A stretch of DNA of 21,009 bases from Saccoglossus kowalevskii (taxonomy: Eukaryota > Hemichordata > Enteropneusta > Harrimaniidae). Below are positions 4,101 through 8,519 of the stretch, one piece after another. Position 1 is the stretch's first letter; each line of letters begins with the position of its first letter. The stretch is taken from positions 10,437 to 31,445 of the forward strand of contig NW_003142802.1 in the NCBI RefSeq assembly GCF_000003605.2. Direction: 5' to 3'. The notes under the pieces are model-generated. The model worked only from the letters and a program-made list of their open reading frames with translations, did no database searches and was not told the origin of the DNA. A program made the translations under genes and the position numbers.

Positions 4101-7100
4101 CATTTTGATTTTATGGACATTTTAAGTATCTTAAAATGCAAACTTTTTTTGGAACAAACAATTATATATTCAACCAGCCGACCAATTTACATTTTCAACT
4201 TTCCAAAATGAAACATTTACAATTGTTTTAATAGTTTCACAAAGAATAACAGAGACAGAAACATTAAGTACATTCACATGTCGGCAACACAAATGTCACA
4301 ACGTATTGAAAAGAATTAGCTAATAGTGCCAGAGAAACATCATGCAGAATCACAATATGTACCGTACTTATCCGGGTAAGAGCCCATGTCTGGGCAAACG
4401 CCACCCCCCACGGTACTGTAAAAATGTGAATTAATTGAAATACCATGTTATCAGTGCCAGATTTGTAATGTCCTCCAACAAAATAATATTAATTTTACTT
4501 TTGAACATTTATGAAGTGAATTACAGCAGGCACAAACATGATCAGTATAACTGTAACTAAGGCAACTGCAAATAAAATAACTTTCTTTCTGTAGTCTTAA
4601 CAATGTTGCAATATGAACAAAAATAAGTGGGACTTGGGAAGTGGAATTGTCACAAAATGTAGCAAATTGTTTTCATAAAATTAGAATATTTGATAATGTA
4701 GCTTCAATAAGAAAGTCCCTATTGCAATTTTCATGGGAAAATTTGCTAACTTCTGTATGAATGAATCTTATTTGCGCCTGCTGTAACACAAATAAGTGCC
4801 AAATATATGTCCATAACATTGATGGATGTGTTCTATTTTTTTTTAGCTGTAATGACGATTGGGACGGGTCGAATTGTGATCAACCCATTCATGGAACAGC
4901 TGATGAACAAAAAAGTTCTGATTCATCAAGTAAGTTGAAATCCACTTATTACATTGTCCATTGCATCACCATCTTGACAATACTAAAGGTGGCTTCACCT
5001 GAATCCTCACAAAACTGATATACACTAAATAACTAGAACGTTTCTAAAAATTGTTAAGGTTGGAAGTCAATTATCCCAACTGCTTAGACATTTTAGACTG
5101 TCTTGGGAATATTTCTTTTTTGAATCCAAATGGCAGTTATTTTTAATGCATCCAGGTTTCATGTAAAACACAATGTATTTTCCATTCGTTGTACACACAG
5201 TTGAGGAACCATATCAGATACCACATGGCACATACATAGACCAGTGCCATCTAATGCAAGTCAATATATGTATCAGTATTACTCTTGTCCCATCTACAGT
5301 CCTTTATAATTATGGTTTGACAATACAAATGAATCTTTACTCAACTAGTACTTATTCCTGTACAAGTACACCTGTATAGTATTTTTCTATTATTTTCCCA
5401 GCATCCATTGCTGTAGCAGTACCCATAATATTACTCGTTATTGTAATCATTATTATACTTGGAATAATACTGTACAGAAGAAGAGCAAGGTATGTCATTT
5501 ACATATGACCTTTGACCCTGTATATTTGTATATGTTCTGACAAAAACTGAAATTGTTAAATATAAATGTGAGTTTTTTATAACAAGTTTTTTGTCACAGT
5601 GGTTCAAAATTCTATTTGAAAATTTTTGTCCTAACAGAGAAAGTGCACTGTCATCAAATCTGCAAATTGTATTATGCTCTTATTGTTCTTCTGTTCTCTG
5701 ATTGGTCTTTACACGTACTACGTGATAGTTCTTTTTCAAATGCAGTTTTTATGAGCTTGCCTATAAATATGCATTTTGCTTTTAGCAGTTCTCTAAAAAT
5801 TGGCTCCTGCTAAAATTTTGGGTTGTACACAATTCAAACAACAGTGCCACTTTAAAAAATGACAAATACTAGTTGGAGATAAGTATTTTTCTTGGCTCAA
5901 TGCCAAAATTATTCCTCTTTTTGTAGTCAATATCAAGGATTCCAGCATAAACGTATGAAGAACGGTGGAGGAGCCACAAATGTTGAAATTGGAAATCCAA
6001 CATTTTTATACGACCAAACAGAAGATGATGATGGTGCCCCGGATTTACTTGATACAGGATTTAATCTAGACCCAGATAAGGTAACTATTATCATCCATTT
6101 TACAATTATCTGTTTATTCTGTCTGTCTTCAAGTCTGGTCGATGAAATCAAAGACAAAGGTTATCATGATTCAGGTTTCATTTTGAGTATGTTATGTAGC
6201 AGCTTAAAATTCAACATATTTGATATTATCATTTTGGCTGTAGTATTAGAGTTTATTAATCCTGTTTTTATTAATCCTGCTCAGTAAAATGGAAAAAGTC
6301 AAGTCATCAAAATTTGTGTAAATAATTTTTCAATATTTAACTACTGAAAAATACTTTGTTTTAGCTGGAATTAATTGTCGCTGAAAAGCTTTTTAGGGTG
6401 TTTTGTATGTAATTTAATTTTACTGATTTTTGACAAATTAAATGTAAAATACAGGGAAAAAAGGTATATTCACTGGATTTTATTTTCACTAAATATTCCT
6501 TCAGTGAAAATAGCGAAAATAAATTACTTTATTGTGATTTAATTCTTTTCTTTCAGTCTTTCACTGAAAAAATAATTGATGGCCAAATCGATCACTTCAT
6601 CATTCATGATATATTTTGCTTTCAATTCAAACGACAAATTAGTAACATGCTCTAATACTTAACAAAAAGTTTATTTTATCCATATTATCATTTTGAGCGT
6701 ATACATTGTATATTTGGAATTTGCCTGTATAGTCAACTATAGCAATGAAATTCCATAAAATGATTGTAAATAAATTGCCCAAACTAACGTACTTTGAATT
6801 TTCTTGTATTGATATTAATCAGTCAGTTATCTGTGGAAATGAAACTTTCTTTCTATTCTGACGATGGTGATAAATCAGGGTGTTTTGAAGCAAAACTACG
6901 AATTTTATAATTTCAGCTGACATCCAAAACACAAATTTTGTATGTTTTCAGACAATCACTTCAAATGTAGAAAGACATAACATTATTGTTCCAGTGAAAT
7001 GAGCCTGAACTTGGTGTTTGAATAGTAGTTCAGATGGTTGGGTGTTTACTTAAAACCCTGTGATTCCTTGGTTTAAGAACAGACACAGCTAGCATACTGT

Positions 7101-8519: not shown

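What the first reader, a model, noticed from the sequence alone, without database searches (positions are those of the whole stretch)
5927..8519. One LRP1 gene with two mutually exclusive tail ends, one LRP1-like and one megalin-like
After the phase-0 exon ending 6080, two downstream exons each begin in phase 0 behind a good pyrimidine tract and CAG/TAG. Exon 7818 gives LDTNFSNPIYETTL and exon 8307 gives PTNFSNPMYDTLY. They share N-F-S-N-P-x-Y, then diverge, and each has its own stop. The 8307 version continues the vertebrate LRP1 tail. The 7818 version has N-P-I-Y, a Thr-Pro segment, an acidic run and terminal D-S-E-V, like megalin as I recall it. Splice choice could switch one ectodomain between the LRP1 endocytosis signal YxxL and a PDZ-anchored tail. 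I know of no description of such a switch in LRP1.
Basis: partly seen in the sequence, partly recalled or inferred. Interest (0 to 1): 0.82.

Follow-up and report, generated by a model that had tools for sequence, protein, structure and literature searches.

The report
Alternative LRP1 tail in acorn worm
A scavenger-receptor gene, probably from an acorn worm, carries a second, differently worded tail-coding segment just ahead of its usual last one, so the cell could perhaps make the same receptor with either a fast-uptake tail or a scaffold-binding tail, although the second version has not been seen expressed.

Summary
The LRP1 exon 5927-6080 ends in phase 0 and two phase-0 acceptors follow: 7818-7985 (55 aa, ends DSEV) and 8307-8519 (70 aa, the usual LRP1 tail). 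The closest protein found, from the acorn worm Glandiceps talaboti, has the 8307-type tail. The 7818 segment looks coding: its codon score exceeds 14,073 overlapping non-coding segments of the window. Its TNFSNPIYET core differs from the 8307 core in 9 of 10 codons, always at the third base only. It lacks YxxPhi and LL, keeps NPxY and ends in a class I PDZ motif.

Two parts of the interpretation need changing. (1) "Megalin-like" is not supported as homology: outside the core, matches to LRP2 tails are not clearly better than shuffles (best of 11, p = 0.052), and this genome's own LRP2 ends TRSEH. A diverged duplicate of LRP1's own last exon fits better. (2) "Mutually exclusive" is unproven: no AATAAA/ATTAAA lies between the two, so competing 3' splice sites fit better.

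A sea-star LRP1 gene model (Asterias X2) also swaps its tail at this junction and ends DSSI. No transcript data were available. New variant of a known kind.

The parts
1015..1138 (+). LRP1 exon, EGF-like repeat (3' part of the gene; the 5' part is probably on other contigs)
   Evidence: AG/GT borders and continuous frame; Pfam EGF_2 in the joined piece
1886..2008 (+). LRP1 exon, EGF-like repeat
   Evidence: AG/GT borders and frame
2721..2825 (+). LRP1 exon, EGF-like repeat
   Evidence: AG/GT borders and frame
3303..3428 (+). LRP1 exon, EGF-like repeat
   Evidence: AG/GT borders and frame
4847..4929 (+). LRP1 exon, last EGF-like repeat and stem
   Evidence: AG/GT borders and frame
5402..5489 (+). 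LRP1 exon, transmembrane helix
   Evidence: AG/GT borders and frame; hydrophobic stretch IAVAVPIILLVIVIIIILGIILY
5927..6080 (+). common cytoplasmic exon with proximal NPTF motif; ends in phase 0 (NLDPDK)
   Evidence: 88% identical to Glandiceps talaboti LRP1-like; one match in the assembly
7818..7985 (+). alternative terminal coding segment, 55 aa, NPIY, no YxxPhi, ends DSEV (class I PDZ-type), stop 7983-7985
   Evidence: acceptor and frame; coding log-odds; third-position-only differences to the 8307 core; motifs
8307..8519 (+). canonical LRP1 terminal coding segment, 70 aa, NPMYDTL (NPxY + YxxL), LL, stop 8517-8519
   Evidence: matches the tail of Glandiceps P0002 and other LRP1 proteins
8785..8790 (+). 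first AATAAA downstream of either stop; probably the shared poly(A) signal
   Evidence: hexamer scan; no AATAAA or ATTAAA between 7985 and 8306, though weak variants TTTAAA (8023, 8174) and AAGAAA (8226) occur
8224..8229 (+). GTAAGA, the one GT[AG]AG site found between 6075 and 8520; if used with acceptor 8306 it would put an intron behind the 7985 stop
   Evidence: pattern scan; use unknown

Best explanation
This is the 3' end of an LRP1 gene of, most likely, an enteropneust hemichordate (inferred from the 88% match to Glandiceps). Its terminal exon can start at either of two competing 3' splice sites, 7817|7818 or 8306|8307. Both join in phase 0 to the common cytoplasmic exon ending at 6080.

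The 7818 segment is an old, diverged duplicate of the NPxY-bearing start of LRP1's own last exon. It has kept the NFSNPxY adaptor box, lost the YxxL and LL signals, and ends in D-S-E-V. The 8307 choice gives the normal LRP1 tail for rapid clathrin uptake. The 7818 choice should give the same ectodomain with a tail still read by PTB/FERM adaptors, with slower YxxL-driven uptake, and able to bind class I PDZ proteins such as GIPC or SNX27-retromer.

Shown here: gene identity, frames, splice borders, coding character, motif gain and loss. Inferred: that both are spliced, that they share the 8785 poly(A) signal, the duplication origin, and all binding and trafficking consequences.
For: Frames and splice borders. 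Nearest protein with the canonical tail, P0002. One match each in the assembly. Codon score above 14,073 non-coding segments. Third-position-only core differences, 9 of 10 codons. LRP1 profile preferred over LRP2 profile, 14.6 against 7.9 bits. The 7818 segment opens two residues before TNF and the 8307 segment one residue before it, while the own LRP2 last exon opens 15 residues before TSFSNPIY. No AATAAA/ATTAAA between the segments. YDTL and LL lost, class I PDZ end gained. Passages on YxxL as the main LRP1 endocytic signal (PMC3429044; PMC5331069), on the PDZ terminus of LRP2 and its use by GIPC, and on SNX27 binding both class I PDZ ends and NPxY (PMC8083963). Other gene models vary at the same junction: Asterias X2 P0113 (...IK|RNFNIFTPSYRRLSDANIDIMLDSSI), Mobula P0010, amphioxus X3 P0003.
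Against: No RNA evidence at all. The Glandiceps entry shows only the canonical tail, and its cluster has one member, so no second isoform is held there. The search with the 55-aa tail found no relative (8 candidates, none at E<=10; it needs shared 5-residue words, so distant relatives could be missed). The exon has therefore not been shown to be conserved in any other species. Outside the core nothing aligns with the 8307 tail; DNA similarity between the two stretches is at best E 0.24, so the duplication rests on the core and exon boundary alone. One wrong frame of the segment also scores 0.25. The SNX27-type acidic clamp is only half met: D at -3, A at -5 (rule). The Mobula and lizard differences may be annotation artefacts.
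Confidence: 0.67

Rival explanations
1. The 7818 segment was captured from, or shares descent with, a megalin (LRP2) last exon, so that LRP1 carries a true megalin tail as an option.
For: NPIY and a terminal DSEV as in vertebrate LRP2 (STNFENPIY...KEDSEV in P0120). Class I PDZ ends in 18 of 19 vertebrate LRP2 tails and 0 of 93 canonical LRP1 tails. Own LRP2 has SFSNPIY and an acidic SPAYNPTEDDEEDTAELV stretch; shuffle p = 0.052 with the 7818 tail.
Against: LRP2 profile scores lower than the LRP1 profile and 907 of 1000 core-kept shuffles do as well. The other 10 LRP2 tails tested (amphioxus and 9 of the 19 vertebrate ones) give shuffle p from 0.063 to 0.92. Own LRP2 ends TRSEH, without a class I PDZ ligand, and its exon start differs.
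Confidence: 0.12
2. A poison segment: when 7818 is used, the GTAAGA at 8224 is spliced to 8307, so the 7985 stop lies 238 nt before a junction and the RNA is destroyed; the segment tunes LRP1 dosage and its protein tail is incidental.
For: A donor-like GTAAGA at 8224 lies between the two segments.
Against: A dosage segment needs no codon bias, no third-position-only substitution and no conserved NPxY box. The putative intron would be only 83 nt and the donor has TTT before it.
Confidence: 0.1
3. A dead or dying duplicate exon that is no longer spliced, or a curiosity without function.
For: No transcript seen; no homologue of the full 55-aa tail found; the Glandiceps model lacks it.
Against: Intact acceptor with the joint-highest pyrimidine content of the nine measured, open frame, top codon score, and only third-position differences in the core. 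A dead copy with that much silent divergence should have lost the frame or the core.
Confidence: 0.11

Closest known systems
LRP1 cytoplasmic tail of deuterostomes (e.g. Glandiceps talaboti LRP1-like, P0002)
   Same: Common exon 5927-6080 and the 8307 segment: NVEIGNPTF..., DPDK|PTNFSNPMYDTLY..., PIL near the end
   Different: No second terminal coding segment in P0002; none of the 93 canonical LRP1 ends counted is a class I PDZ ligand
Vertebrate LRP2 (megalin) tail
   Same: NPIY box (in part of the species) and a D-S-x-V/I type class I PDZ end
   Different: No significant alignment between box and end; LRP2 has F[ED]NP and a conserved TED[TS]F[KR]DTA block (listing); LRP2 is a separate gene on another contig here, C3895
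Asterias rubens LRP1-like isoform X2 (P0113)
   Same: Tail replaced at the same exon junction, short, ends in a class I PDZ-type motif (DSSI)
   Different: No NPxY in the replacement (it has PSYRRL); homology with 7818 not shown; a computed gene model whose RNA support was not seen
Amphioxus LRP1-like isoform X3 (P0003)
   Same: Variation at the same DPDK|PTNF junction
   Different: A 25-residue insertion that keeps the canonical tail, not a replacement
ApoER2/LRP8 exon 19 (mouse numbering)
   Same: A cytoplasmic-tail splice choice in an LDL-receptor-family protein that adds adaptor binding (passages of PMC6213145, and PMC5331069)
   Different: A facultative 59-residue proline-rich stretch; that the C-terminus and NPxY stay unchanged is recalled, not read

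Membership tests
LRP1 | LRP1-type juxtamembrane tail exon (FQHKRM...NVEIGNPT...DPDK) | tested here: met
   88% identity over 51 aa to Glandiceps LRP1-like; 64% over 92% of the query to amphioxus LRP1-like
LRP1 | Distal NPxY overlapping YxxL in the last exon | tested here: met
   NPMYDTL in 8307-8519. The 7818 alternative fails this: NPIYETT
LRP1 | Full ectodomain (LA clusters, propellers) in one gene with this tail | tested here: inconclusive
   Exons 59-81% identical to Glandiceps LRP1 lie on C4414 (L015, L033) and C2132 (L010, L013, L026), but physical linkage to C3358 was not shown
LRP2 (megalin) tail, for the 7818 segment | Sequence match to LRP2 last exons beyond the NPxY box | tested here: not met
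   907 of 1000 core-kept shuffles reach the observed LRP2-profile score; pairwise best p 0.052 of 11
LRP2 (megalin) tail, for the 7818 segment | C-terminal class I PDZ motif D-S-x-V/I | tested here: met
   DSEV; vertebrate LRP2 18 of 19. Own LRP2 ends TRSEH and amphioxus LRP2-like TESKA instead
Mutually exclusive exons | Each alternative is a complete exon with its own 3' end, and the two never co-occur | tested here: inconclusive
   No AATAAA/ATTAAA between 7985 and 8306, weak variants only; competing 3' splice sites fit better; no RNA available
SNX27-type PDZ cargo | X-S/T-X-hydrophobic end with acidic residues at -3 and -5 | tested here: inconclusive
   Sequence: D at -3, A at -5, D at -6; rule from PMC8083963. 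Binding not testable here
Expressed splice isoform | Junction reads 6080-7818 | not testable with these tools
   No transcript data held

The most novel reading that the evidence does not exclude
In Ambulacraria LRP1 itself is a two-mode receptor: one terminal exon with two splice starts exchanges a YxxL uptake tail for a PDZ-anchored or recycling tail. The Asterias X2 tail (DSSI) would be the echinoderm version. In this hemichordate the PDZ end known from vertebrate megalin sits on the LRP1 alternative and not on megalin (which ends TRSEH), so the two receptors would have divided the same tail functions differently, by splicing in one lineage and by gene in the other.
Probability: 0.2. Interest if true: 0.75.

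Novelty: new variant of a known kind. Interest (0 to 1): 0.5.

Why it matters
LRP1 and megalin are large endocytic receptors of one family whose tails decide where and how fast they travel. A natural LRP1 that chooses its tail by splicing would separate ectodomain from tail within one gene. It would give a direct in vivo test of what YxxL and a PDZ end each contribute, and it would bear on how the LRP1 and LRP2 tails came to differ. If it proves unexpressed, it is only a well-preserved duplicate exon.

Tried and rejected
Rejected: chance motif; haplotype or assembly duplicate; recent duplication or gene conversion (core third positions nearly all changed; flanking DNA not alike); capture from the species' own LRP2, though p = 0.052 leaves this weakly open.

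Led nowhere: the solved-structure searches gave one chance hit at E 1.3, none and EGF repeats of Notch, Delta and teneurin; Pfam sees EGF-like and membrane-type matches in the joined pieces, nothing specific to the tails; a recalled mammalian LRP2 tail found nothing in the own genome, though the LRP2 gene was then found through its propeller; the bacterial promoter scan has no bearing here. Ten paper searches showed no LRP1 tail switch in the titles and abstract beginnings listed (one search listed 20 of 33). They cover only the open-licence PMC library. I read passages, not whole texts, of six papers: PMC3429044, PMC6213145, PMC8083963, and, looking for LRP1 splicing, PMC10293750, PMC5331069 (69, 12 of 14 places) and PMC6428713; the shown passages of the last three mention no LRP1 splice form. 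In one search P0002 was sorted as 'junction differs' only because its EPDK was not in my pattern; I count it as canonical: 89 canonical, 4 with insert or altered junction (P0003, P0033, P0063, P0066), 2 with other tails (P0010, P0113), 20 LRP2-type, 5 not classified (P0046, P0064, P0077, P0105 and the cnidarian P0108, which has TNFSNPLF), of 120 listed from 1094 hits.

Full report
What was checked. The window is G000:C3358:10437-31445 of a 572-Mb assembly. Its LRP1 exons run 1015-1138, 1886-2008, 2721-2825, 3303-3428, 4847-4929, 5402-5489, 5927-6080, with AG/GT borders and one continuous frame. They encode EGF-like repeats, one membrane helix and the common part of the tail. The nearest protein found for exon 5927-6080 is LRP1-like of the acorn worm Glandiceps talaboti, 88% over 51 residues (taxonomy), so the window is most likely from an enteropneust hemichordate. 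Exons 59-81% identical to other parts of that protein lie on contigs C4414 and C2132; the gene is probably split over contigs. The common tail exon matches one place in the assembly.

The two ends. Exon 5927-6080 ends in phase 0. The segments 7818-7985 and 8307-8519 both begin in phase 0 behind pyrimidine-rich acceptors and each reach a stop. The 8307 end is the standard LRP1 tail: it matches P0002 (DPDK|PTNFSNPMYDTLY...PILC against EPDK|PTNFANPMYDTLY...PILR; 61% over 70 residues) and scores 63.6 bits with an LRP1 last-exon profile built from 47 distinct tails.

Is 7818 coding? Four lines agree. GC is 0.464, against 0.298 and 0.336 in the flanking introns. The codon log-odds, trained on the other LRP1 exons, the 8307 exon and the downstream zinc-finger ORF (958 codons) against the introns, is 0.438 bits per codon in frame. 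None of 14,073 overlapping plus-strand non-coding 165-nt segments reaches it (maximum 0.324). These come from the eight introns, which also trained the background, and from two intergenic stretches. A caution: the next frame of the same stretch scores 0.25, so composition supplies part of the signal. NF.NP.Y was found in 188,604 bases only in these exons and in one stretch that looks like another LDL-receptor-family tail. The cores TNFSNPIYET and TNFSNPMYDT differ in 9 of 10 codons, always at the third base only, 7 of them silent. That is what two protein-coding copies under long selection look like; the core was picked because it is alike, so this tests constraint within it, not beyond it.

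What is its origin? The core fits LRP1 better than LRP2 (profile 14.6 against 7.9 bits). Past the core the rest matches neither family better than shuffles. With the core kept, 317 of 1000 (LRP1) and 907 of 1000 (LRP2) shuffles are as good; with the rest alone, 159 and 402 of 1000. Pairwise against 11 LRP2 tails (own, amphioxus, 9 of 19 vertebrate) the best shuffle p is 0.052, with this genome's own LRP2; the others range from 0.063 to 0.92. The own LRP2 was found on C3895: a propeller exon there is 56% identical to amphioxus LRP2 and 45% to Glandiceps LRP1, and tail exons follow. Its last exon, read by eye as 877992-878324, begins 15 residues before TSFSNPIY and ends ELVTRSEH. The 7818 segment starts within one residue of where the LRP1 last exon does. 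I therefore read it as a diverged duplicate of LRP1's own last exon, with the megalin likeness confined to NPIY and DSEV. The DSEV end may thus be convergent.

How it would work. The 8307 tail has NPMY, YDTL and LL. The 7818 tail has NPIY, no YxxPhi, no LL, two TPI sites, an acidic run and a class I PDZ end. Reviews name YxxL as the main LRP1 endocytosis signal (PMC5331069, passage; 'presumably' in PMC3429044) and give LRP2 a PDZ terminus linked to GIPC among others (PMC3429044, passages). SNX27 binds class I ends, best with acids at -3 and -5, and NPxY through its FERM domain (PMC8083963, passages); the 7818 end has D at -3 but A at -5. Slower uptake plus PDZ-based anchoring or recycling is the likely result. 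This is inference.

How the choice would be made. No AATAAA or ATTAAA lies between 7985 and 8306, only weak variants, and the first AATAAA after both stops is at 8785. The simplest arrangement is one terminal exon with two competing 3' splice sites 489 nt apart, the 8307 reading frame being 3' untranslated sequence when 7818 is used. A donor-like GTAAGA at 8224 leaves a nonsense-decay alternative open. 'Mutually exclusive exons' is therefore not the best description.

Other animals. Of 1094 proteins found with a propeller of P0002, 120 were listed and I looked at the ends of those 120. With P0002 moved by hand, 89 have the canonical junction, 4 an insert or altered junction, 2 another tail, 20 an LRP2-type tail and 5 were not classified. 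The two with another tail are Asterias rubens X2 (IK|RNFNIFTPSYRRLSDANIDIMLDSSI) and Mobula birostris (DPDK|SHRTLWHSSESMPNGYST). The Asterias one ends in a class I PDZ-type motif and is the best hint of a wider pattern. It is a gene model only, and homology with 7818 is not shown. Against conservation: Glandiceps shows only the canonical tail, and the 55-aa tail found no relative.

Verdict. A real, coding-looking alternative end of LRP1; expression unproven; megalin descent not supported; a new variant of a known kind, the closest described precedent seen being the ApoER2 tail exon (PMC6213145, passages). Ten paper searches listed no report of such an LRP1 switch; subscription literature was not searched.

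Noticed in passing
window 15728-17593 (+): Long open frame of a C2H2 zinc-finger protein (Pfam zf-C2H2 E 9.5e-37) downstream of LRP1 on the same strand; relatives were not sought.
   Followed up: partly
window 17957-18858: 27-nt inverted repeat arms, 96% complementary, 848 nt apart, looking like the ends of a short mobile element; a similar stretch seems to begin near 4362 by eye.
   Followed up: partly
window 11430-11706: 38-nt imperfect inverted repeat arms (76%) 201 nt apart, MITE-like.
   Followed up: partly
window 1187-1301 and 7291-7395: Short minisatellites inside LRP1 introns, units of 23-24 nt and 32 nt.
   Followed up: partly
G000:C3895:877992-878324 (L034): The species' own LRP2 last exon ends TAELVTRSEH, without the PDZ-type end of vertebrate megalin; amphioxus LRP2-like P0030 ends TESKA. 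The megalin PDZ end may be a vertebrate feature.
   Followed up: partly
P0113 (Asterias rubens LRP1-like isoform X2): LRP1 tail replaced at the same junction by a short one with PSYRRL and a DSSI end.
   Followed up: partly
P0003 (amphioxus LRP1-like isoform X3): 25-residue insertion exactly between DPDK and PTNF, so the same junction is variable in a cephalochordate gene model.
   Followed up: partly
window 5994-6005: The proximal motif is NPTF, not NPxY, in this species, Glandiceps P0002, two sea stars (P0032, P0113) and amphioxus P0003, whereas the vertebrate LRP1 tails looked at have NPTY or NPAY.
   Followed up: no
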